NCBI GenBank assembly: GCA_020859985.1
Contig: JAJBVD010000068.1
Location: forward strand, 1 to 64,000
Source of the DNA: Clostridiales bacterium
GTDB lineage: Bacteria; Bacillota; Clostridia; Lachnospirales; Lachnospiraceae
Direction: 5' to 3'
DNA length: 64,000 bases
The position numbers and the translations under genes were made by a program. Below the pieces are notes generated by a model, which was not told where the DNA came from, did not search any database, and worked only from the letters and a program-made list of their open reading frames with translations. This document shows, piece after piece, positions 132-11,053 of the stretch (position 1 is its first letter; each line of letters starts with the position of its first letter).

Positions 132-1601
132 ATGGGGAGACAAAAATCACTTGTAAATAACGTCATATTTAATTTCGCTAAAACCTTGTCTTCGCTCATT
201 TTCCCGGTTATTACATTTGCATATTGCTCCCGCATATTAGGCGCGGATGGGATCGGAAAAGCGAATTTCGCAAAGTCAGTGATTTCTTATTTTACAATGG
301 TTGCCATGCTGGGCATGAATTATTATGGTACCAGAGAGGCCGCAAAGGTACGCGATGACAGGGAGAAACTGAGCCATTTTGCACAGGAAATGCTGGTTAT
401 CAATGGCTGCTCTACTGTGGTTGCGTATCTTGCTTTCGTGGTATCGTTATTTTTAGTAAAAAAGTTTCAGGATTATACGCTTCTTCTGCTGGTCAACAGC
501 GCATCGATCGTACTGATGGGGCTGGGAATGGAATGGCTTTATCAGGCGGTGGAGGAATACCGCTATATTGCCCTGAGGTCCATGCTCTTTCAGGTAGTTG
601 CACTGGTGATTATGTTTATTACGGTAAGGGATGCGGATGATGTGGTAAGCTATGCATTTGTGACTATGCTGGCATCCTCTGGTTCTTATGTGTTGAATTT
701 TATTAACAGCAGGAAGTATATTGATTTTCGAAAGCACGGAAAATGGCATTTCCGTGGGCATTTAAAACCCATTTTCTGGCTTTTTGCCATGGCGGTATCG
801 ATCGAACTTTATACGGTCTTGGATTCTACGATGTTGGGATTCATTAAGGATGATACGGCTGTTGGCATTTATACGGCGGCAGTTAAGATTAATAAGATTG
901 TAAACAGCCTGATTACCTCTCTGGGTGTCGTGCTGATTCCGCGGCTTTCCTATTACGTCGGCAGCGGAGAAGAAACAAAAATGAAGGAGCTGATAAAAAA
1001 GGCGTATCAGTATGTGTTTTTGTTTTCGGTTCCTGCCTGTCTCGGATTATTTATGCTGAGTGATGAGATTGTGCTGCTGTTCAGTGGAAGCGGGTTCGAA
1101 TCGGCCGGATTTACAATGAGACTGTTGACACCGATTGTTCTGGTGATACCGTTCAGTGTGGTCACAAATCAGCAGACTTTTGTGCCGATGGGAAAGGAAA
1201 AACTGATTATCATTTCGACTTGCACAGGAGCCATTGTAAATCTTACGTTGAATTCCATACTGATTCCGCGGTATGCGGAAAATGGTGCTGCGATTGCTAC
1301 AGTGGTAGCAGAATCAGCGGTGGCTGTGGTCTGTTATATCAATGCAAGACGGACTCTGGGCATCCGTGAGATTTTTTCGGGATATTATCAATATTGGATT
1401 GCGGCAATCCCGATTCTTGTGATTGGCGGGATTCTGGAACAGGTACAAATGAATTACGTACTGCGCATGGTTCTTGTTATGGGTATTTCTGCGACTGCTT
1501 ATTTTGGGATTTTGTATTTGTTTAAAAATGCATACTTTATTGAAGCTTTGAAAATTGTGAAAGAAAAAATTTTTAATCAATGTAATGATAAATGTGTATA
1601 A
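132..1601 (+). CDS. Polysaccharide flippase (Wzx/MATE-like, polysaccharide biosynthesis family)
   Basis: The 489-residue protein is almost entirely hydrophobic, with about 12-14 predicted membrane segments. The opening SLVNNVIFNFAKTLSS and the early GxxGIGKANFA-type segment are typical of polysaccharide biosynthesis flippases, which move undecaprenyl-linked repeat units across the membrane. The length matches the family. The ATG at 132 follows an AAAGG-like site about 12 nt upstream. It lies between a phosphonate gene and licD, so it probably exports the glycan made by this locus. Confidence 0.9.
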   Translation: MGRQKSLVNNVIFNFAKTLSSLIFPVITFAYCSRILGADGIGKANFAKSVISYFTMVAMLGMNYYGTREAAKVRDDREKLSHFAQEMLVINGCSTVVAYLAFVVSLFLVKKFQDYTLLLLVNSASIVLMGLGMEWLYQAVEEYRYIALRSMLFQVVALVIMFITVRDADDVVSYAFVTMLASSGSYVLNFINSRKYIDFRKHGKWHFRGHLKPIFWLFAMAVSIELYTVLDSTMLGFIKDDTAVGIYTAAVKINKIVNSLITSLGVVLIPRLSYYVGSGEETKMKELIKKAYQYVFLFSVPACLGLFMLSDEIVLLFSGSGFESAGFTMRLLTPIVLVIPFSVVTNQQTFVPMGKEKLIIISTCTGAIVNLTLNSILIPRYAENGAAIATVVAESAVAVVCYINARRTLGIREIFSGYYQYWIAAIPILVIGGILEQVQMNYVLRMVLVMGISATAYFGILYLFKNAYFIEALKIVKEKIFNQCNDKCV

Positions 1602-1624
1602 AGATGAAATGAGGGAATCAGATA

Positions 1625-2428
1625 ATGAAGGAAATAACTCAGCTTGAAGAACTTAAACAAATTGAACTTGAAATCATGAAGAAAATACATAAATTTTGCG
1701 TGGATAATAACATTACATATTTTCTTTCTTATGGAACATTAATTGGTGCAATTCGCCACCAAGGCTTTATACCATGGGACGATGATATAGATATTGAAAT
1801 GTTTAGAGAAGATTATAATAAATTCTGTGCTTTATTTCCAAATGTGGAATCAGAATTAGGGTTAGAACTCGTTAATCACAAAACCAAAAGATATTTAGGG
1901 AGACCAATGTCTAAGGTTATAGATATAAGGACGGAATTAATTGAACTTGGATTTTCCGGTGATGATAAATTAGGTGTATTTATTGATATTTGGCCTATAG
2001 ATGGAGTAAGGAAAAACAAGTATCGTCAACTTTTCTTTACGATTAGATATGGTTTTTTGAAAAAACTTTTATATGCAAATATTTCAATTCCGCCAGACAA
2101 ACAAAATCTTAATGCATTCATAAAGCAATGTTTAAAACCATTTTCCCGTTGGCCATCGAATAAAAAGAAAGTTGAAATTATGGATAAAATTGCTTCTAAC
2201 ATAGATATAAATGAATCAGATGAAGTGGCCTGTTATGCTGTTTCGAGTAAAATAATTTATAAAAAAGATGATTATTATTCGGCTGTTTTAGTTCATTTTG
2301 AGGATGCGGATTTTTTTGCCCCTATAGGTTATGATAAAATTCTGCGAAAATATTATGGTAATTATATGGAATTGCCTCCAGTGGATGAGCAAGTTCCGCA
2401 TCATATCTGTGGTATTTATTGGAAATAA
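1625..2428 (+). CDS. LicD-family phosphotransferase
   Basis: The 267-residue protein has the LicD signature near the N-terminus (SYGTLIGAIRHQGFIPWDDD at about residues 35-54), followed by an acidic metal-binding stretch. LicD proteins transfer phosphocholine or related phospho-substituents from a CDP-activated donor to surface sugars. The gene is clearly more AT-rich than its neighbours and uses many AAA, AAT and ATA codons, which suggests separate acquisition. It starts 23 nt after the flippase stop. With a phosphonopyruvate decarboxylase tail upstream, transfer of an aminoethylphosphonate-type group is plausible, but that is inference. Confidence 0.85.
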   Translation: MKEITQLEELKQIELEIMKKIHKFCVDNNITYFLSYGTLIGAIRHQGFIPWDDDIDIEMFREDYNKFCALFPNVESELGLELVNHKTKRYLGRPMSKVIDIRTELIELGFSGDDKLGVFIDIWPIDGVRKNKYRQLFFTIRYGFLKKLLYANISIPPDKQNLNAFIKQCLKPFSRWPSNKKKVEIMDKIASNIDINESDEVACYAVSSKIIYKKDDYYSAVLVHFEDADFFAPIGYDKILRKYYGNYMELPPVDEQVPHHICGIYWK

Positions 2429-2783
2429 GAATACGACTATATAATGTTTGATTTCCAACTTAATTATAAAACGGAAAAATCACCCACGAAAATGGGAGAT
2501 TCAGGTTTTGAAATATTGCCAATATTGTATTGAAATAAATTTGATATTGGTAATGGGAGAAATTCTGGAATGAGTGTATATGTATCATGCGTTATGGAAG
2601 GTTCTCGTCATAGGGAGTTCTATGATGAATTAAATTGGATTTTTATATATTTGTAAAAAAAGTCATACTTTCTAGAGGCGCCAGATATCGAAAAAGCTAA
2701 GATTCCACATAAAGACAGTGCCGATAATGCAGGAATAAAATAGCTGACATGGATAAAACAGGAACAAAAACAATTGAAGGATT
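2429..2783. other. AT-rich intergenic stretch, probably decayed coding DNA
   Basis: These 355 bases contain no convincing gene. A 28-codon open frame starts at about 2571 and a short open run at about 2677-2743 ends in TAG, but neither resembles a family I know. The base composition continues that of licD, so this may be the remains of a further transferred gene. Confidence 0.4.
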
Positions 2784-3752
2784 ATGAGAACAACATTAGT
2801 GATCATGGCGGCCGGTCTCGGCAGCCGATACCAATCAAATAAGAACATATCTGCTATTAAACAGCTGGAGCCGATTGGGCTGCATGGCGAGCTTATGATT
2901 GATTTTTCAATTCATGATGCGATTGAAGCGGGATTTAAGCGCATTATTTTTGTTATCCGTCCGGACATCAAGGCAGATTTTAAAGAGAGAATTGGAGAAC
3001 GGATTGAGAAGATTGGCGCACGGTTTGGTGTGGAGGTTGATTATTGCTTTCAGAGAGCGGAGAATTTGCCAGTCGTTGATGAAAGTCCTATACAGGTTCC
3101 GGATGGAAGAGTGAAACCATGGGGGACAGGGCAGGCTGTTCTCGCGGCAAAAGATTTGATTTATGGGCCATTTGCTGTTATTAATGCGGATGACTATTAT
3201 GGTAAGGAAGCGTTTCGGAAGATCCATGACTGGCTGGTTCTTGAGCATGCAGAAAATGCGATTGCTATGGCAGGATTCAATTTAAAGAATACACTGTCGG
3301 ATCATGGAGGTGTGACGAGGGGGCTATGTAAAGTGGCTGTCGGTCATACTCATGTGTTGGATGTTGTTGAAACAAGTGGGATTGTGAAGATGGCGGATGG
3401 TGGCGCTTCAGCGGATGGAATAGCATTGGATCCGGATGGTTTTGTTTCTATGAATTTCTGGGGCTTTGCCGCGAAAGAGAATCAAAAGCCATGGTATATG
3501 GAAATGCTGGAAAAAGGTTTTGTTGATTTTTTTAGAACGGAAGTTTCATCCAATCCACTTAAGGCAGAATACCTTCTTCCTACTCATATTGGGGCGCTGC
3601 TTCGGGCGGGCAAAGTTACGGTAAAACTGTTGGAGACGGCGGATATGTGGTTTGGGGTTACATATCCGGAAGATAAGGCGGCTGTGGTTGAGAGTATTCG
3701 TGGACTGATTGATAGTGGTGTATATGAAGAAGAATTGTATTCAGATTTGTAA
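2784..3752 (+). CDS. Sugar-phosphate nucleotidyltransferase
   Basis: The 322-residue protein opens with the nucleotidyltransferase signature (VIMAAGLGSRY at residues 6-16). It has the GTGQAVLAAKD substrate loop near residue 113 and the metal-binding NADDYYGKEAF near 133-143. Such enzymes join a sugar 1-phosphate to an NTP to form an activated sugar. This long subfamily is often found in capsule and choline/phospho-modification loci. It precedes the heptose genes and is probably in the same transcript. The sugar and nucleotide cannot be read from the sequence. Confidence 0.85.
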   Translation: MRTTLVIMAAGLGSRYQSNKNISAIKQLEPIGLHGELMIDFSIHDAIEAGFKRIIFVIRPDIKADFKERIGERIEKIGARFGVEVDYCFQRAENLPVVDESPIQVPDGRVKPWGTGQAVLAAKDLIYGPFAVINADDYYGKEAFRKIHDWLVLEHAENAIAMAGFNLKNTLSDHGGVTRGLCKVAVGHTHVLDVVETSGIVKMADGGASADGIALDPDGFVSMNFWGFAAKENQKPWYMEMLEKGFVDFFRTEVSSNPLKAEYLLPTHIGALLRAGKVTVKLLETADMWFGVTYPEDKAAVVESIRGLIDSGVYEEELYSDL

Positions 3753-3954
3753 TTCATATAGGTTTTTTAGGAAATTCTGAAGGAAGATTTGGCATACTGA
3801 AACAGCAGTTGTTCGATTTGCGTTACAGCAGGGTTCGAAGATGCTGCAGAAGTAAATCGTTCGACTAATTACGAGTATATGTGATTAAAGATAAGATTCT
3901 CAATGCAGGCTCTTATTTTGTGGGAAAAGGAATTGCTTTGTAAGGAGCAGGTAG

Positions 3955-4638
3955 ATGCGAACAATACAGAAGAATTTTGATGATTGCCTTAACTCAAAAC
4001 AACAGCATCATGTAGATAATTTGCTTTCCCGTTATCCGGCATTATGCTCATGTGAAGAGGATATTGTAAAGGCATATCTTATCATGGAGCATTCTTACAC
4101 AGATGGAGGCAAGCTGCTGATTGCTGGTAATGGTGGTTCTGCTGCTGATTCTGAGCATATTGCGGGTGAACTGATGAAGCGGTTTAAATCACCGCGCCCG
4201 GTTTCGGCGGAATTTGCTGAAAAGCTGATTGCAGCTGATTCAGTGCGTGGGGCAACGCTTGCGAAGAATCTGGAGTGTGGTCTGATGGCGATTCCGTTAG
4301 TTGCACATGAGGCTTTGACAACAGCCTATATTAACGATGTGGATGGACTGGGAGTGTTTGCGCAGCAGCTGTTTGGCTATGGACGTGCGGGCGATGTTTT
4401 TCTTGGAATCTCAACGTCCGGAAACAGTAAAAATATCATGAATGCGGCTGTGGTAGCGCGTGCTTCCGGAATTAAAGTAATCGGTCTGACCGGAGCCGAT
4501 GGCGGTGAACTTGCTGAATTTGCTGATGTGGCAGTGAAAGTACCGGAGCAGGAGACTTATATGGTGCAGGAATTACATCTTCCCGTATACCATTGCTGGT
4601 GCTTGATGCTGGAGGAGCATTTTTTCGGGCAGGCATAA
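3955..4638 (+). CDS. gmhA: Phosphoheptose isomerase-like SIS-domain protein
   Basis: The 227-residue SIS-domain protein has the phosphosugar-binding motif AGNGGSAADSEHIAGEL at about residues 57-73 and GISTSGNSKN near 146-155. GmhA converts sedoheptulose 7-phosphate to D-glycero-D-manno-heptose 7-phosphate. The family is usually about 190-200 residues, so this one is slightly long. The start follows GGAGCAGGTAG. The stop is next to the fused HddC/GmhB gene, which supports a heptose role. Confidence 0.87.
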   Translation: MRTIQKNFDDCLNSKQQHHVDNLLSRYPALCSCEEDIVKAYLIMEHSYTDGGKLLIAGNGGSAADSEHIAGELMKRFKSPRPVSAEFAEKLIAADSVRGATLAKNLECGLMAIPLVAHEALTTAYINDVDGLGVFAQQLFGYGRAGDVFLGISTSGNSKNIMNAAVVARASGIKVIGLTGADGGELAEFADVAVKVPEQETYMVQELHLPVYHCWCLMLEEHFFGQA

Positions 4639-4662
4639 TTGGAAAGACAGGAAAAAGTATTT

Positions 4663-5979
4663 ATGAAAACTGTAATTATGGCGGGAGGCAAGGGAACAAG
4701 GATTTCTTATGTTGCATCGGACATTCCCAAACCGATGATTAAAATTGATGGGATGCCTGTGTTAGAAAGGGAGCTTATTAACCTTCGTGATCAAGGCTTT
4801 AAGGATATTATCATTACGGTTAGCCATCTTGGAAATATTATTATGGATTATTTTGGAGATGGAAGCGGGAAATCGCCAATTACAGGGGAAGGGTTTGGCG
4901 TAAAAATCCAATATTTTGTCGAGGAAGTACCTCTGGGGAACGCTGGGGCACTGTTTCAACTGAAGGACGAACTCAATGAGGATTTTCTGCTGCTGAACGC
5001 GGATGCAGTTTTCGATATTGATTTTAATCGGATGGTAAAATTTCATAAGGAAAAAGGTGCTCTGGTAACGCTTTTTACCCATCCAAATTCCCATCCGTAT
5101 GACAGCGGACTGATTATTGCAGGGGAAAATGGGAACGTGAAGCAATGGCTGACGAAGGAAGACGAACGTCCACAATACTATAGGAACAGGGTGAATGCCG
5201 GGCTTCATGTGATTAATCCGAAAGTATTGGACATAGAAATCAAAACTCCGAAGATTGATCTGGATCGTCAGATTCTGAAACCCTTGGCTGGAACAGGACA
5301 GATGTTTTGTTATGACAGTCCGGAGTATGTGAAAGACATGGGGACCCCGGAGCGATATTATTCTGTGATGGAGGATTTTAGGGCCGGACGGGTGACAGCC
5401 AGAAATCTTCGTAATAAGCAAAAAGCGGTGTTTCTGGATCGTGATGGCACGATAAACAAGTACGTTGGTTTTTTAAGGGATATAGATGATTTTGAATTGA
5501 TTCCGGATGTCGCAAAGGCTGTCAAAATGATAAATGAAAGTGGTTATCTTGCTATTGTAGTGACGAATCAGCCTGTTCTGGCCAGAGGTGAAGTGACATT
5601 TGACCAGCTGCAGCAGATTCATAATAAAATGGAGACCTTACTTGGCCTTGAGGGAGCCTGGCTGGATGGTATTTATTTTTGCCCGCATCATCCGCACAGT
5701 GGCTATGCTGGTGAAGTCCCGGAGCTGAAAATGAATTGCGAATGCAGAAAACCAAAGCCGGGGATGCTGTTGCAGGCAGCGGAAGATTTTAATATTGATT
5801 TGTCCAAATCCTGGATGGTTGGTGATGGTGAGAATGATATAGCTGCTGGAAAAAACGCGGGCTGTCACGCGGCGCTTCTTATTGGTGATGGTACGGATTG
5901 TAAAAAAGGATATGACTTTGGACAGACAACAACGTGTGATACGTTAGTAGAGTTTGTGAAGGAAAGAATCGTAGACTGA
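4663..5979 (+). CDS. Fusion: heptose-1-phosphate nucleotidyltransferase plus heptose bisphosphate phosphatase
   Basis: From the ATG at 4663 the protein is 438 residues. Residues 1-235 form an HddC/RmlA-type nucleotidyltransferase (MAGGKGTRI near the start, then a LLNADAVFDID metal site). Residues 248-438 form a HAD phosphatase of the GmhB type (VFLDRDGTINKYVG, a Cys/His zinc-like cluster including CPHHPHS and CECRKPKPG, and GDGENDIAAG). In the heptose pathway these are steps three and four, flanking no kinase here. A TTG at 4639 is in frame, but 4663 has AGGAAA upstream and begins at the conserved fold. The HddA-type kinase is not in the window. Confidence 0.87.
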   Translation: MKTVIMAGGKGTRISYVASDIPKPMIKIDGMPVLERELINLRDQGFKDIIITVSHLGNIIMDYFGDGSGKSPITGEGFGVKIQYFVEEVPLGNAGALFQLKDELNEDFLLLNADAVFDIDFNRMVKFHKEKGALVTLFTHPNSHPYDSGLIIAGENGNVKQWLTKEDERPQYYRNRVNAGLHVINPKVLDIEIKTPKIDLDRQILKPLAGTGQMFCYDSPEYVKDMGTPERYYSVMEDFRAGRVTARNLRNKQKAVFLDRDGTINKYVGFLRDIDDFELIPDVAKAVKMINESGYLAIVVTNQPVLARGEVTFDQLQQIHNKMETLLGLEGAWLDGIYFCPHHPHSGYAGEVPELKMNCECRKPKPGMLLQAAEDFNIDLSKSWMVGDGENDIAAGKNAGCHAALLIGDGTDCKKGYDFGQTTTCDTLVEFVKERIVD

Positions 5980-6001
5980 GAAAAAAGCGATAATGCCACG
6001 A

Positions 6002-6040
6002 TTTGTGTCATTGCTTTTATAAAAAGCTCGTCACAAATTT
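6002..6040 (+). other. Conserved nested hairpin before rpn copy 1
   Basis: ATTTGTG pairs with CACAAAT around an inner perfect stem, GCTTTT/AAAAGC with an ATA loop. A second inverted repeat (CGTTTCTATA against TATAGAGACG, one mismatch) lies at 6051-6086. Both structures recur before copy 2. They lie upstream of the promoter and may be the terminator of the preceding gene or a regulatory or recombination site. Confidence 0.5.
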
Positions 6041-6095
6041 TTGCCTGAAACGTTTCTATATATAGGATGAACTTTTATAGAGACGAGATCGGCAC

Positions 6096-6124
6096 TTGCA
6101 GGGCATTGTATTTTGGCCTATAAT
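6096..6124 (+). promoter_or_regulatory. Promoter of rpn copy 1
   Basis: A TTGCAG -35 and a perfect TATAAT -10 are separated by 17 bases. They lie 76 bases before the ATG at 6200. Confidence 0.65.
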
Positions 6125-6199
6125 AAATCAGTACAGTACCGAAAGTAAACTATGGGAGGGATTCCGAAGAGTCTATCAATAGTTTACGGAGGTGCAAGG

Positions 6200-7150
6200 A
6201 TGCAGAAGAAAAAGAAAGAAGTTGCGTTGCCTGAAGGTGCGGGAAGCGGAGGAACCACCGGGGCGGTGAAACACAAGGCCAAGGACAGCGTGTTTACGGA
6301 TCTGTTCAGGGATAGGAGGTACCTGCTTCAACTCTATCAGGCGCTTCACCCGGAAGACAAGATGGTGACTGAGGATTCCCTGACAGACATTACGATTAAT
6401 AATGTGCTTGTCAATGGGCAGTACAATGATCTTGGTTTCATGGTTAATGGGAAGCTGATGATTTTGGTCGAAGCGCAGTCTACGTGGACAATGAATATTA
6501 TTGTGAGAGCGTTGCTATATTATGCACAGTCGCTGCAGGAACATCTGGACAGGGAGGGTGCAGACTTATATGGCAGCCGGAAAGTGAATTTGCCGGAATC
6601 AGAGTTGTATGTGATTTATACCGGGGAACGGGTGAACCGTCCGCAAGAGATTTCTCTTATGGAAGAGTTTTTTAAGGGCAGAAGCTCGGCGGTTGACGTG
6701 AAAGTGAATATGCTTTATGGTACAGTGAATCCGCAGCAGACAGACGGCGAGGATATTATCGGTCAGTATGTCATTTTTACGAAAGTGTTCAATGAACAGA
6801 TACGATTGCATGGCAGGATATTGGAAGCTGTATCGGAGACGATCCGAATTTGCAAAGATCAGAATGTTTTGAAAGCGTATCTGGCTTCACGGGAGAAGGA
6901 GGTAACTACAATGATGATGGATTTATATGATCAGGACCGTATTTTGGAGATTCATATTGCAAGTGAGAAGAAGATAGCGGCAGAGGAAGAGAAGAAGAAA
7001 GCAGAAAAGGAAGCATTGGAAAAAGAGGAAGCAGATATATGGCGGCTGTTGAAACTAGGGAAATTGTCAGTTGAGGAGATTGCGGACTGCAAGGCAGTTT
7101 CTGTGCAAAGGGTACGTGAAATTGAAGCCGGTATGCTTCAGGAAGCGTAA
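6200..7150 (+). CDS. Rpn-family PD-(D/E)XK nuclease / putative transposase, copy 1
   Basis: 316 residues from the ATG at 6200, chosen because ACGGAGGTGCAAGG lies just upstream. An in-frame ATG at 6152 has a poorer context. The N-terminal two thirds carry the Rpn/PDDEXK_2 pattern: KDSVFTDLFRD, then an acidic residue in ITINNVLVNGQYNDLGF, then ILVEAQSTWTMN, which supplies the catalytic (D/E)xQ/K strand. Rpn proteins are DNA endonucleases first described as recombination-promoting and later linked to phage defence. A Lys/Glu-rich coiled coil (about 250-280) and a small HTH-like end (VEEIADCKAVSVQRVREIE) finish the protein. It is the first of two tandem copies. Confidence 0.85.
   Translation: MQKKKKEVALPEGAGSGGTTGAVKHKAKDSVFTDLFRDRRYLLQLYQALHPEDKMVTEDSLTDITINNVLVNGQYNDLGFMVNGKLMILVEAQSTWTMNIIVRALLYYAQSLQEHLDREGADLYGSRKVNLPESELYVIYTGERVNRPQEISLMEEFFKGRSSAVDVKVNMLYGTVNPQQTDGEDIIGQYVIFTKVFNEQIRLHGRILEAVSETIRICKDQNVLKAYLASREKEVTTMMMDLYDQDRILEIHIASEKKIAAEEEKKKAEKEALEKEEADIWRLLKLGKLSVEEIADCKAVSVQRVREIEAGMLQEA
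6911..7150 (+). CDS. Candidate internal in-frame small protein, RpnS-like (copy 1)
   Basis: Inside the rpn frame a perfect AAGGAGGT (6896-6903) stands 7 bases before an in-frame ATG at 6911, which is followed by two more ATG codons. Translation from here gives a 79-residue protein with the coiled coil and HTH-like end but without the nuclease domain. In described Rpn systems an intragenic small protein made from the 3' end blocks the full-length toxin. The site is seen directly; the antitoxin role is inferred. Confidence 0.6.
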   Translation: MMMDLYDQDRILEIHIASEKKIAAEEEKKKAEKEALEKEEADIWRLLKLGKLSVEEIADCKAVSVQRVREIEAGMLQEA

Positions 7151-7342
7151 ATATTTGTGATGTGTTTTTCACACCATATAATACTAAGGATTTTCTGTTT
7201 AGCGACTTCATTGTAGTGATTATGTTCTTCATTTTCCAAATGCCACGATTTGTGTCATTGCTTTTATAAAAAGCTCGTCACAAATCCTTGCCAGAAACGT
7301 TTCTATATATAGGATGAACTTCTATAGAGACGGGATCGGCAC

Positions 7343-7371
7343 TTGCAGGGCATTGTGTTTTGACCTATAAT
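7343..7371 (+). promoter_or_regulatory. Promoter of rpn copy 2
   Basis: The same TTGCAG-N17-TATAAT arrangement as in copy 1. Each copy therefore has its own promoter. Confidence 0.65.
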
Positions 7372-7441
7372 ACAGCTGTACCGAAAGTAAACTATGGGAG
7401 GAATTCCGAAGAGTCTATCAATAGTTTACGGAGGTGCAAGG

Positions 7442-8392
7442 ATGCAGAAGAAAAAGAAAGAAGTTGCGTTGCCTGAAGGTGCGGGAAGCGGAGGAACCAC
7501 TGGGCTTGTGAAGCACAAGGCCAAGGACAGCGTGTTTACGGATCTGTTCAGGGATAAGAAGTACCTGCTTCAACTCTATCAGGCGCTTCATCCGGAAGAC
7601 AAGACGGCGACTGAGGATTCCCTGACAGACATTACGATTAACAATGTGCTTGTCAATGGGCAGTACAATGACCTTGGTTTCATGGTCAATGGGAAGCTGA
7701 TGATTCTGGTCGAAGCGCAGTCTACGTGGACGATGAACATTATTGTGAGAGCGTTGCTATATTATGCACAGTCACTGCAGGAACATCTGGACAGGGAGGG
7801 TGCAGACTTATATGGCAGCCGGAAAGTGAATTTGCCGGAATCAGAGTTGTATGTGATTTATACCGGGGAACGGGTGAACCGTCCGCAAGAGATTTCTCTT
7901 ATGGAAGAGTTTTTTAAGGGCAGAAGCTCGGCGGTTGACGTGAAAGTGAATATGCTTTATGGTACAGTGAATCCGCAGCAGACAGACGGCGAGGATATTA
8001 TCGGTCAGTATGTCATTTTTACGAAAGTGTTCAATGAACAGATACGATTGCATGGCAGGATATTGGAAGCTGTATCGGAGACGATCCGAATTTGCAAAGA
8101 TCAGAATGTTTTGAAAGCGTATCTGGCTTCACGGGAGAAGGAGGTAACTACAATGATGATGGATTTATATGATCAGGATCGTATTTTGGAGATTCATATT
8201 GCGAGCGAGAAGAAGATAGCGGCAGAGGAAGAGAAGAAGAAAGCAGAAAAAGCAGCGGAAAAAGAGAAAAAAACAGTTATTGAAAGATTGCTGCGCGATG
8301 GAACATTTTCTGTTGATAAAATAGCTTCTATTGTAGGGGTATCATTACAAAGGGTACGTGAGATTGAAGCGGGTATGCTTCAGGAAGCGTAA
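7442..8392 (+). CDS. Rpn-family PD-(D/E)XK nuclease / putative transposase, copy 2
   Basis: 316 residues from the ATG at 7442, again behind ACGGAGGTGCAAGG. It is almost identical to copy 1 through the nuclease domain (a few changes such as V/T near the N-terminus), and the catalytic-type residues are the same. Codons from 8251 to 8347 are entirely different: the coiled-coil end and HTH-like segment read KTVIERLLRDGTFSVDKIAS instead of the copy 1 version. Identity then resumes for the last RVREIEAGMLQEA. The replacement is the same length. A strong terminator follows at 8415. Confidence 0.85.
   Translation: MQKKKKEVALPEGAGSGGTTGLVKHKAKDSVFTDLFRDKKYLLQLYQALHPEDKTATEDSLTDITINNVLVNGQYNDLGFMVNGKLMILVEAQSTWTMNIIVRALLYYAQSLQEHLDREGADLYGSRKVNLPESELYVIYTGERVNRPQEISLMEEFFKGRSSAVDVKVNMLYGTVNPQQTDGEDIIGQYVIFTKVFNEQIRLHGRILEAVSETIRICKDQNVLKAYLASREKEVTTMMMDLYDQDRILEIHIASEKKIAAEEEKKKAEKAAEKEKKTVIERLLRDGTFSVDKIASIVGVSLQRVREIEAGMLQEA
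8153..8392 (+). CDS. Candidate internal in-frame small protein, RpnS-like (copy 2)
   Basis: Same internal AAGGAGGT with 7-base spacing and triple ATG as in copy 1. The predicted 79-residue product carries the divergent 32-residue segment. The two small proteins would therefore differ just where a partner-specific contact might lie. Confidence 0.6.
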   Translation: MMMDLYDQDRILEIHIASEKKIAAEEEKKKAEKAAEKEKKTVIERLLRDGTFSVDKIASIVGVSLQRVREIEAGMLQEA

Positions 8393-8414
8393 AATTAAAT
8401 ATTCAGTTGATGAA

Positions 8415-8442
8415 AAAAGAGCCTCATTTGGGGCTCTTTTTT
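8415..8442 (+). terminator. Intrinsic terminator after rpn copy 2
   Basis: AAAAGAGCC pairs with GGCTCTTTT across a short loop, followed by a T run. It separates the rpn unit from the membrane protein gene at 8461. Confidence 0.85.
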
Positions 8443-8460
8443 GAAAGGATGTGAAGCGGT

Positions 8461-9774
8461 ATGACCAGAAAAAATAAGAATGTGTTGTACTATCTGGATA
8501 CGATTTCGGATGCGTGTATTTTGTTTGCCTCGTATGTGATTTCGATGTACATTCGATATTATATTATGGATAGTGAGCCGGGGCTGCCGATCCTGTCGAC
8601 ACCGTATCTGCTGGTGGCCGCGGTGTACAGTGTGATCATGGCGAGCGTGTTTTCCTATGTGCAGTCCGGGAAGGAAAACTGGATTGATAAGGACATGCGG
8701 CTCTATTCCAAGCTGAATGGGGGCAGTGGACATAAGATCCTTGCGGTCAATATGATCGGCTGTCTTTTTTTGATGTCGTTTTTCTTCGTTGTGGGTGTCG
8801 TTCACTTTTCAAGGTGGGCGTTAGTCCTTTTGTGGGGAATCTCAAGTATGGGGATTATCATCAAGGAAGGGATTGTCCAGATCTGCCTGTCGAGAGAGAA
8901 TGTCAGAGTGCAGCATGGTGTTCGCACACTGGTCGTCGGTGATGGGGAGCTTGCAAAGGAATATCTCCGGTCGGCGTGCGGCTATCCGCTCCTGGGAAGA
9001 TATGTTGTAGGCGTTGTAGGAACTCATGAGGCTGGAGCGGGCAAGGCCGGTGCCGGTATCAATGTGAAAAGAGATGTCTGGGAGGATATGTCTGGCCGGT
9101 TTGGAGCGGGAAAGGATGATTTGCCGCAGGATGCGCCGCCCTATCTGGGGAGCCTGAAGGAGCTGGGAACGATCCTGGAAAGCAGCGAAGTGGACGAAGT
9201 GATCCTGGCGATGGAGGACCTCAAAAGGGAGGAGGCGGAGCGGATTGCGCGGAATGTGACGGCCAGAGGGATGGAGCTGGGGATGGTTCCGCCCTACAGC
9301 AATCTGATTCCGGCGAAAGCGCCGGTGCATGAATTTGGCGATACGAGGGTGATCAGCCTTGGCAGAGGCGGAGACAGAAGGAGTCAGGACACTCTGTGGC
9401 TTGGGTTGGTTCTGGCGGCGGCTCTTTTGATGATCTTACTGGTGATCAACCTGTTTGGAATTGGCGAGCTGCGAAGCTTTGCGGTGTATGAGGATTATAA
9501 ATGTATTATCTTTGGAATTGCGGGAGTGTTTCTGTATTCGTATCTGATGTACTATTTTAAGGGCCGGCCCTGGGCGAATACGAAACGGGCAGTGACCGCC
9601 TGCGCGTTCTGCGTGGCTGCATCGCTGATCTACGAGATGCTCTACACGTCCGGCGTTCGCTACGTAGAGCAGATTTTAGCGGATATGAAGCTGATTTTTA
9701 TAAGCGTCGCGATCTGCTGGTGCGTGACGGGACTGATCCGCCGGATTGAAAAGGATTTTCCGATATCGATTTAA
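8461..9774 (+). CDS. Membrane protein resembling the N-terminal half of a polyprenyl glycosylphosphotransferase
   Basis: 437 residues. Four N-terminal membrane segments (about 10-150) lead into a Rossmann-like CoA/nucleotide-sugar-binding region (TLVVGDGELAKEYLRS near 158, then VDEVILAMEDLKREEAERI). WbaP/CapD-type enzymes share this layout. The cytoplasmic phosphotransferase domain that normally follows is absent. Instead there are four more membrane segments (about 310-430) of a type I do not recognise. Start chosen at 8461 behind AAAGGATGTGAAG. It may be a regulator or a non-catalytic relative in polysaccharide synthesis. Confidence 0.6.
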   Translation: MTRKNKNVLYYLDTISDACILFASYVISMYIRYYIMDSEPGLPILSTPYLLVAAVYSVIMASVFSYVQSGKENWIDKDMRLYSKLNGGSGHKILAVNMIGCLFLMSFFFVVGVVHFSRWALVLLWGISSMGIIIKEGIVQICLSRENVRVQHGVRTLVVGDGELAKEYLRSACGYPLLGRYVVGVVGTHEAGAGKAGAGINVKRDVWEDMSGRFGAGKDDLPQDAPPYLGSLKELGTILESSEVDEVILAMEDLKREEAERIARNVTARGMELGMVPPYSNLIPAKAPVHEFGDTRVISLGRGGDRRSQDTLWLGLVLAAALLMILLVINLFGIGELRSFAVYEDYKCIIFGIAGVFLYSYLMYYFKGRPWANTKRAVTACAFCVAASLIYEMLYTSGVRYVEQILADMKLIFISVAICWCVTGLIRRIEKDFPISI

Positions 9775-9991
9775 GAAGACGAGGGCGCGGGCATTCACAG
9801 TGGCTGTCTGTTTGCTTCTGATCGAAGCGATTATTTGGATGTAAAAAGTGTAGCTGTCAGAGGGAATGAACTTTGGCAGCTGCACTTGTTTTTATTTTAC
9901 AGGAAACGTTGTTCCTGAAAAACTAAATTTTTGCGGTTAATGCTGCGCTGATCCGGATGGACGTGCAGGCTGGTGACGGTATGGGCGGGGA

Positions 9992-10573
9992 ATGAATATG
10001 AGCAATGTCTACGGATATGTGAAGGATTCGGACAATCAGAGCGTGGATACGCAAATACAGGCAATGCGGGACTACGGCGTTGAGAATTCCTGTATCTATA
10101 AGGATGAGCGGAATGATTTTTCTGCCTGGCAGCTTCTTCTCGGTAAGGTTCGGCCCGGCGATACGGTTGTTCTTAAGAGTCTTGATCAGTTAGGCGACAG
10201 CTATGAAGCAATCATCGGTGAATGGGAGAAGCTTACGAAAGAGCATGATGCGGCAGCCGTGGTTCTGGATATGCCGCTCCCGGATACGGCGAAAGCGCTG
10301 AGCGGGCAGTTCGTTTCTGAGCTTGTGCTGGACGTCCTGAATTATGTCGAGCAGAACAGAAAGGTACTTCGCCGCCGGAAACAGAAGGCAGCGATCAGGG
10401 CAGCACAGGAAAAAGGCGTAAAATTCGGTTCTCCTTCTAAGATAATTCCGGAAGAATTTGAGAAGGTGAAAGCAGAGTATGAACGCGGCGATTTGACGGT
10501 TACTGCCGCAGCGAAACAGCTGGATATCAGCAGGGCTACATTTCGGAGATGGGTGAAGAAGGAGGGGATGTGA
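9992..10573 (+). CDS. Serine recombinase homologue with altered active site
   Basis: 193 residues in the resolvase/invertase layout: catalytic domain (1-125), long helix with YVEQNRKVLRRRKQKAA, and a C-terminal HTH (LTVTAAAKQLDISRATFRRW). The serine equivalent to the nucleophile is present (Ser13 in YGYVKDSD). However, the usual Arg of YVRVS is Lys, and the DRLGR motif reads DQLGD, so both arginines that position the DNA phosphate are lost. This predicts a DNA-binding protein with weak or no recombinase activity. It is joined directly to the antiterminator gene. ATG at 9998 is an alternative start. Confidence 0.78.
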   Translation: MNMSNVYGYVKDSDNQSVDTQIQAMRDYGVENSCIYKDERNDFSAWQLLLGKVRPGDTVVLKSLDQLGDSYEAIIGEWEKLTKEHDAAAVVLDMPLPDTAKALSGQFVSELVLDVLNYVEQNRKVLRRRKQKAAIRAAQEKGVKFGSPSKIIPEEFEKVKAEYERGDLTVTAAAKQLDISRATFRRWVKKEGM

Positions 10574-11053
10574 GTGTTATATGCATTGTATCATCCGCAG
10601 GAGGCTGAAAGCACAACGGAGTCTGAGCCGTTTTCCATATGCGATACGTATCAATATACCGTTGAGCGGATGCGGCATTATCAGGACGAATGGCATTCGG
10701 TGACGGCGACGATTTTTCCGAACTTTTTCTTTCTGGACTGTGAAGAGGAGGAAGCGGAAAAATTAAAGGAAAAAAATCTGCCGCTGATCTCCATTCCGGA
10801 GGAGCTGTCGGAGCTTTTGAATGAGCTCAGCGACAAGCATCATCATATTCCGATGTCGAAAGGAGTTATTAAAAATGGTCTGGCACATGTGACGGAAGGG
10901 CCGCTGACCGGGCACGATAGCCGCATTGTGCGTATCGACCGGCACAAACGACTGGCGTGGCTGAAGGTTTCTGAAGATGCCCCCAGAAATTTTGCGAAAG
11001 ACAGCACGAGTGTGCTGATTGCCGGACTGGAGATTACAGAGAGATTGTCATAG
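10574..11053 (+). CDS. NusG/LoaP-like transcription antitermination protein
   Basis: 159 residues with a GTG start, directly after the recombinase TGA and behind AAGGAGGGG. The N-terminal half fits an NGN domain (opening strand MLYALYHPQE, then ATIFPNFFFLD in the place of the usual FPGYVFV). The C-terminal half fits a KOW domain (HVTEGPLTGHDSRIVRIDRHKRLAWLKV split over two strands). Specialised NusG paralogues of this size (LoaP, RfaH-like) keep polymerase elongating through long polysaccharide operons. The coupled recombinase homologue suggests joint control of surface glycan genes. Confidence 0.75.
   Translation: MLYALYHPQEAESTTESEPFSICDTYQYTVERMRHYQDEWHSVTATIFPNFFFLDCEEEEAEKLKEKNLPLISIPEELSELLNELSDKHHHIPMSKGVIKNGLAHVTEGPLTGHDSRIVRIDRHKRLAWLKVSEDAPRNFAKDSTSVLIAGLEITERLS

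What the first reader, a model, noticed from the sequence alone, without database searches (positions are those of the whole stretch)
6896..8392. Both Rpn genes carry a perfect internal start site for a 79-residue C-terminal protein
AAGGAGGT sits exactly 7 bases before in-frame ATG-ATG-ATG at 6911 and 8153. This is a stronger site than most gene starts here. It matches the known logic of Rpn systems, in which a small protein from the 3' end of the toxin gene neutralises the nuclease.
Basis: partly seen in the sequence, partly recalled or inferred. Interest (0 to 1): 0.82.

Follow-up and report, generated by a model that had tools for sequence, protein, structure and literature searches.

The report
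Nested antitoxin in tandem nuclease genes
Two neighbouring copies of a nuclease gene in a gut bacterium carry, inside their last quarter, a strongly conserved second start site for a small protein that probably holds the nuclease in check, an arrangement already known from E. coli.

Summary
In detail: AAGGAGGT, 7 bases, then ATG-ATG-ATG, in frame, opening a 79-residue C-terminal protein in both genes. The two sites are not independent, because the genes are a tandem duplicate. Across relatives the site is under selection at the DNA level. The Glu codon is GAG in 75 of 75 aligned same-genus homologues (32 expected), the base before it is G in 71 of 75 (28 expected), and Val at the start column is always GTG (10 of 10). 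The N-domain is a diverged PD-(D/E)XK nuclease, related by profile comparison to E. coli RpnA/B/C/E. The tail has variable four-residue repeats and a helix-turn-helix. Relatives carry stand-alone copies of the tail. These are published hallmarks of RpnL/RpnS gene-within-gene toxin-antitoxin systems (Zhong et al. 2023), so the mechanism is known. What is new is modest: genes below the cut-offs of Pfam and NCBIfam, and a mosaic duplication in which the nuclease parts are 98% identical but 40 tail residues differ at 20. One tail resembles a tail borne by a different nuclease family, suggesting exchangeable specificity cassettes. Translation and neutralisation are inferred, not shown.

The parts
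6096..6124 (+). promoter-like TTGCAG-N17-TATAAT of copy 1 (-10 is consensus, -35 matches 3 of 6)
   Evidence: TTGCNN-N17-TATAAT upstream of 17 of 17 sequences examined: the window pair, 13 relatives and 2 stand-alone or broken copies
6136..6195 (+). leader hairpin in front of the full-length start, pairing part of its SD
   Evidence: RNA fold z = -3.44; no covariation support; function unproven
6188..6194 (+). SD (GGAGGTG) of full-length copy 1
   Evidence: -13.2 kcal/mol
6200..7150 (+). rpnL copy 1, 316 aa, diverged PD-(D/E)XK nuclease plus tail
6428..6478 (+). proposed catalytic motif D77...E91-x-Q93 (NDLGF...EAQ)
   Evidence: invariant in 35 of 35 aligned homologues; aligned by hhalign with D63...E82-x-Q84 of E. 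coli RpnA
6896..6903 (+). internal SD AAGGAGGT, copy 1
   Evidence: conserved at synonymous sites
6911..7150 (+). rpnS copy 1, 79 aa from ATG-ATG-ATG: long helix with 4-residue repeats, then HTH
6986..7105 (+). variable segment of rpnS copy 1 (codons 26-65)
   Evidence: 52 of 120 nt and 20 of 40 aa differ from copy 2; flanks nearly identical
7343..7371 (+). promoter-like TTGCAG-N17-TATAAT of copy 2
7430..7436 (+). SD (GGAGGTG) of full-length copy 2
7442..8392 (+). rpnL copy 2, 316 aa
   Evidence: 92% identical to copy 1
8138..8145 (+). internal SD AAGGAGGT, copy 2
8153..8392 (+). rpnS copy 2, 79 aa
8228..8347 (+). variable segment of rpnS copy 2 (codons 26-65)

Best explanation
Each gene is an RpnL/RpnS-type gene-within-a-gene toxin-antitoxin unit. 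The full-length protein (RpnL) has an N-terminal PD-(D/E)XK nuclease (residues about 28-187), a helical connector, and a C-terminal tail (a long helix carrying four-residue repeats, then a helix-turn-helix). Ribosomes also start inside the gene, at ATG 6911 or 8153 behind a near-perfect Shine-Dalgarno, and make the tail alone (RpnS, 79 aa). Since the tail is the oligomerisation module of both proteins, free RpnS pairs with the tail of RpnL and blocks the nuclease until a trigger, such as a phage, shifts the balance. The two tandem copies share a nuclease part but differ in the tail, so they are probably two pairs with different specificity. Shown here: the site, its DNA-level conservation, nuclease homology, tail architecture, repeats, stand-alone tail copies in relatives, mosaic duplication. 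Inferred: translation of RpnS, binding, inhibition, phage defence, orthogonality of the pairs.
For: Synonymous conservation in 75 same-genus homologues (78 aligned, 3 without the site column dropped): GAG 75/75 (32.0 expected), G before it 71/75 (28.2 expected). With one sequence per 40%-identity cluster it is still 7/7 and 6/7, P under 1e-3 each. GGAGG plus start at the column in 29 of 39 representatives against a mean of 4.6 (max 10) in 200 synonymous shuffles; no other column exceeds 2. In the named-genome set, GAG 77/78 (24.4 expected) and G 74/78 (33.8 expected). The two SD columns rank 1 and 2 of 96 and of 152 columns, with 9 different residues at the first in one set. Val at the start column is GTG 10/10 (background 35%). 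Profile match to E. coli Rpn: 94.7% probability, E 5.8e-8, catalytic motif aligned. Spacer lengths in 21 tails of the close subfamily fall only in classes 1 and 2 modulo 4. The tail fits HTH proteins. Stand-alone tails: L053, L091, L209, L210, L219, L230. The E. coli control returns the published RpnA start (PMC10327210).
Confidence: 0.85

Rival explanations
1. The internal site is real and makes the small protein, but that protein is a structural subunit or DNA-binding autoregulator of the nuclease complex rather than an inhibitor (like Cas11d inside cas10d, or an HTH antitoxin that represses its own promoter).
Against: In the nearest studied relatives (E. coli RpnA, RpnB, RpnP2) RpnS blocks growth inhibition or DNA damage (PMC10327210). 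The one operator-like element seen by eye, the palindrome at 6001-6038, is absent from several of the 17 upstream regions aligned.
Confidence: 0.1
2. The GGAGG motif is kept for a translational pause between the nuclease domain and the tail, not for initiation.
For: SD-like sequences inside genes have been proposed to slow ribosomes (recalled, from no call); the site sits at the start of the long tail helix.
Against: A pause needs no start codon at fixed spacing, yet the start column is ATG or GTG (Val always GTG, 10/10), or Ile followed by ATG. Stand-alone tail genes exist. The corresponding E. coli site initiates translation (PMC10327210).
Confidence: 0.03
3. The site is a by-product of a conserved protein motif (K/A-E-V-x-x-M) plus codon bias.
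For: Glu is invariant and the following Val nearly so in 35 aligned homologues, so part of GGAGGT is forced.
Against: Other columns with Glu in 85% or more of rows are 10-64% GAG (1 such column in one set, 9 in the other) while this one is 100% and 99%. The preceding residue is of nine types in one set yet its codon ends in G in 95%. Synonymous shuffles do not reproduce the site.
Confidence: 0.01

Closest known systems
E. coli RpnA-E RpnL/RpnS systems (Zhong et al. 2023, PMC10327210)
   Same: PD-(D/E)XK nuclease with D...ExQ motif; internal AAGGAG at a K-E-x-x-M site (rpnA, rpnB, rpnE); C-terminal small protein of helices, HTH-like, with variable four-residue repeats; stand-alone rpnS copies downstream in some genomes; tandem duplications
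   Different: Window genes are below the cut-offs of Pfam and NCBIfam; tail 79 aa against 49-60 aa in the four E. coli genes; site is K-E-V-T-T-M (one codon longer between Glu and Met); tandem copies with near-identical nuclease but different tail
C. difficile rpn gene tested by Zhong et al. (PMC10327210)
   Same: Clostridial rpn gene with predicted RBS and internal start shown to make RpnS in E. coli
   Different: Its sequence was not compared here; different organism
PDDEXK_2 nuclease (PF12784) of the same genus, L093
   Same: PD-(D/E)XK N-domain and a tail 82% identical to that of window copy 1
   Different: Different nuclease family; only a weaker internal site (-10.4) 127 codons before the end
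cas10d/cas11d nested genes (cited in PMC10327210)
   Same: small C-terminal subunit made from inside the larger gene
   Different: subunit is needed for activity, not an inhibitor; unrelated proteins

Membership tests
RpnL/RpnS gene-within-gene toxin-antitoxin systems | N-terminal PD-(D/E)XK nuclease homologous to known Rpn proteins | tested here: met
RpnL/RpnS gene-within-gene toxin-antitoxin systems | in-frame internal RBS and start giving the C-terminal domain alone | tested here: met
   sequence and conservation; translation itself not shown
RpnL/RpnS gene-within-gene toxin-antitoxin systems | four-residue repeats of variable number in the first helix of RpnS | tested here: met
   21 of 21 tails examined have spacers of 10, 14, 18, 22 or 21, 25, 29, 33 residues (close subfamily only, Ile-type tails and the incomplete L090 left out); the two window copies have equal length
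RpnL/RpnS gene-within-gene toxin-antitoxin systems | RpnS fold: helical bundle, HTH-like, dimerising by the long helix | tested here: inconclusive
   helix 232-286 plus HTH in the model; dimer not modelled; 7TH0 not among the listed matches, which does not exclude it
RpnL/RpnS gene-within-gene toxin-antitoxin systems | RpnS made and blocks RpnL; RpnL cleaves DNA; phage defence | not testable with these tools
   bench work needed
NCBIfam TIGR01784 (Rpn family model) and Pfam PF04754/PF12784 as drawn | score above curated cut-off | tested here: not met
   copy 2 only 19.6 bits against 52.1 for TIGR01784, over the tail; no Rpn model for copy 1; so a homologue outside these models, not a member as drawn
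PADLOC defence families | match to a known or candidate defence model | tested here: not met
   copy 1 none; copy 2 best PDC-S70 E 0.012

The most novel reading that the evidence does not exclude
The 3' end of these genes is an exchangeable specificity cassette. Because the antitoxin is the toxin's own C-terminus, one recombination event replaces the recognition surface of both partners at once and creates a new, orthogonal toxin-antitoxin pair in a single step. The two window copies would be such a pair (nuclease parts 98% identical, tail residues 26-65 50% identical, flanks of the segment again near-identical), and the same cassettes travel between different PD-(D/E)XK nuclease families.
Probability: 0.45. 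Interest if true: 0.65.

Novelty: new member of a known kind. Interest (0 to 1): 0.42.

Why it matters
It extends RpnL/RpnS systems to Lachnospiraceae genes that the curated libraries tried here do not flag. It gives evolutionary evidence, independent of any one experiment, that the internal start is a conserved functional element. It also offers a natural pair of near-identical genes in which mainly the tail differs, a ready-made test of whether the tail sets toxin-antitoxin specificity.

Tried and rejected
Chance or codon-bias origin of the site: rejected. A conserved leader RNA switch masking the full-length start: the hairpin folds better than shuffles (z -3.44) and part of the SD is paired, but the pair counts on 13 leaders show no covariation (84.0% of cells paired against 83.4% in shuffles, one pair with changes on both sides), so it stays unproven; two further leaders (L008, L010) lack the CACC element and were left out of that count. 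'Internal start more open than full-length start': not supported (more open in 34 of 77, 8 of 11 and 27 of 53). Internal SD stronger than that of the full-length start: 62 of 77, 6 of 11, 41 of 53, a modest trend. Internal promoter for RpnS: only a 9-of-12 match at 6693-6721, in a region with 10 matches against 4.7 expected. No solved structure by sequence for the nuclease family. The VIA list did not contain 7TH0; that is no evidence. Literature: full-text searches (15 of 237 listed); PMC10327210 is the only one listed whose title or abstract treats the system; PMC12707154 holds the word Rpn twice and was not opened; of PMC10327210 text parts 1-3 of 4 and found passages were read; no paper in the library holds both 'recombination-promoting nuclease' and Lachnospiraceae. 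The same-genus set is part of the matches listed: 30 loci came with that search and 60 regions were picked from its list. A structure job for RpnS alone and Foldseek searches never found a free machine.

Full report
WHAT IS THERE. The two genes read from ATG 6200 and ATG 7442 (316 aa each). Inside each, AAGGAGGT is followed after 7 bases by three in-frame ATG codons at 6911 and 8153, opening a 79-codon C-terminal frame. The site scores -14.1 kcal/mol against the 16S anti-SD, stronger than 46 of 51 predicted ORF starts in the window. Of 985 in-frame internal start codons, 4 are as strong, two of them these sites.

IS IT SELECTED? I gathered homologues from 47 same-genus genomes (own included), 37 of which have a match: 30 loci from that search and 60 regions picked from its list. 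Of 101 distinct matching frames, 78 were long enough to align; 75 have the site column and 3 do not (L016 and two frames of L042). The Glu codon of the motif is GAG in 75 of 75 (32.0 expected from the same genes' codon use). The preceding codon ends in G in 71 of 75 (28.2 expected), although it encodes nine different residues. Where the start column is Val it is GTG in 10 of 10 (35% background). With one sequence per 40%-identity cluster the excess remains: 7 of 7 and 6 of 7, P under 1e-3 each. In 39 representatives under 70% identity, GGAGG plus a start codon at proper spacing occurs at this column in 29, against a mean of 4.6 and a maximum of 10 in 200 synonymous shuffles. No other column of the alignment has more than 2. 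The two SD columns rank first and second for third-base G of 96 and of 152 columns; other conserved Glu columns are 10-64% GAG. In this second set 58 of 77 scored genes have Ile (51 ATT) at the column with ATG one codon on, so their exact start is less sure.

POSITIVE CONTROL. The same scoring applied to E. coli K-12 rpnA, rpnB, rpnC and rpnE gives as strongest site from codon 150 on M244, M244, M241 and M244 (in rpnA only just, -8.3 against -8.0). M244 with K240 and E241 is the published RpnA internal start (PMC10327210). E. coli uses AAG GAG NNN NNN ATG (rpnA, B, E); the window genes use AAG GAG GTA ACT ACA ATG.

STAND-ALONE TAILS AND OTHER RPN GENES. In G009 what looks like a deletion derivative carries the promoter and half of the leader joined to an intact 72-codon tail, 1.8 kb from a full-length gene with the same tail but two more repeats; its SD is weaker (-6.9). 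G004 has a separate tail gene with the AAGGAGGT site 3.9 kb downstream of a full copy. Other rpn-like families of the genus have tail copies behind the full gene: L210, L209 (two), L219, and L230 in the window's own genome; their SD strengths range from -13.8 to -7.4. Of 8 further TIGR01784 matches in the window's genome (3 above cut-off), 5 were read as genes, and all 5 have an internal site of -12.4 or stronger in their last 100 codons; for L226 the script took a wrong frame, and L228 and L229 are partial. The window family's broken copy on contig C62 still carries the internal site.

MOSAIC PAIR. Between the two window copies differences are 12 of 237, 5 of 237 and 0 of 237 nt in the three thirds of the part before the site, 3 of 75 in RpnS codons 1-25, 52 of 120 in codons 26-65 and 2 of 42 in codons 66-79. 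The tail of copy 1 is most like those of L093 (82% aa; a PF12784 nuclease) and L078 (79%; similar N-domain by eye, not scanned). The tail of copy 2 is most like those of G010 (L047 79%, L095 71%). The two window tails are 66% identical to each other. This fits exchange of a tail cassette. Because toxin and antitoxin share the tail, such an exchange changes both together. Against a simple story, L093 and L078 have only a weaker internal site (-10.4), 127 and 102 codons from the end.

MECHANISM. Best reading: an RpnL/RpnS toxin-antitoxin gene. Steps shown here: site, conservation, homology, tail architecture. Steps taken from E. coli experiments (PMC10327210): separate translation, RpnS binding and blocking RpnL, DNA cleavage, phage defence. 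Own inference: the two copies are two pairs of different specificity. The full-length start lies behind a TTGCNN-N17-TATAAT promoter found in 17 of 17 upstream regions examined (the -35 matches 3 of 6 of the consensus) and a leader hairpin that pairs part of its SD (z -3.44). That could keep RpnL below RpnS, but covariation does not support it and openness does not differ consistently.

VERDICT. Real, selected and, as far as sequence can tell, correctly interpreted, and of a published kind. New: genes outside the curated models, codon-level evidence for the internal start, and a natural tail-swap pair.

Noticed in passing
window 132-11050: The rpn pair sits inside an exopolysaccharide locus (flippase PF01943, LicD, nucleotidyltransferases, SIS-domain isomerase, WcaJ-like transferase) next to a resolvase-like gene (9992) and a LoaP-like antiterminator (10574; 61.5 bits, below cut-off 125).
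   Followed up: partly
L176 (G009), L178 (own contig C36): In G009 similar polysaccharide genes and a LoaP-like gene flank a full rpn copy and a stand-alone tail; the own-genome remnant on C36 also lies near a gene resembling the window's LoaP-like one (by eye). rpn copies may be tied to polysaccharide loci.
   Followed up: partly
window 6136-6195 and 7377-7438: Leader hairpin GUAAAC...GUUUAC next to the full-length SD, with (C/U)ACC paired to GGUG; GTTTACGGAGGTG invariant in 13 leaders aligned, but no covariation.
   Followed up: partly
window 6001-6038 and 7248-7285: Imperfect palindrome ATTTGTGTC...GTCACAAAT upstream of both promoters, repeated with the duplicated unit; seen in some close relatives only.
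   Followed up: no
window 7155-7182: A 10-of-12 promoter-like site (TTGTGA-N16-TATAAT) just behind copy 1, apart from the promoter of copy 2 at 7343.
   Followed up: no
L095-L174: A subfamily has ATT far more often than ATC/ATA at the internal start column (51 of 58 Ile) with ATG next; ATT as a real start codon is possible but untested.
   Followed up: no
L230 (own contig C31) 1291-2274 and just downstream: Another Rpn-like gene (below the TIGR01784 cut-off) with an internal AAAGGAGGGGTCAAA-ATG site and a separate tail copy right behind it, differing in the number of EGRL-like repeats.
   Followed up: partly
L175 (G004) 2295-5290: Between a full rpn gene and a stand-alone tail lies an AAA-ATPase-like gene with two further ORFs, by eye like a defence operon (not searched).
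   Followed up: no
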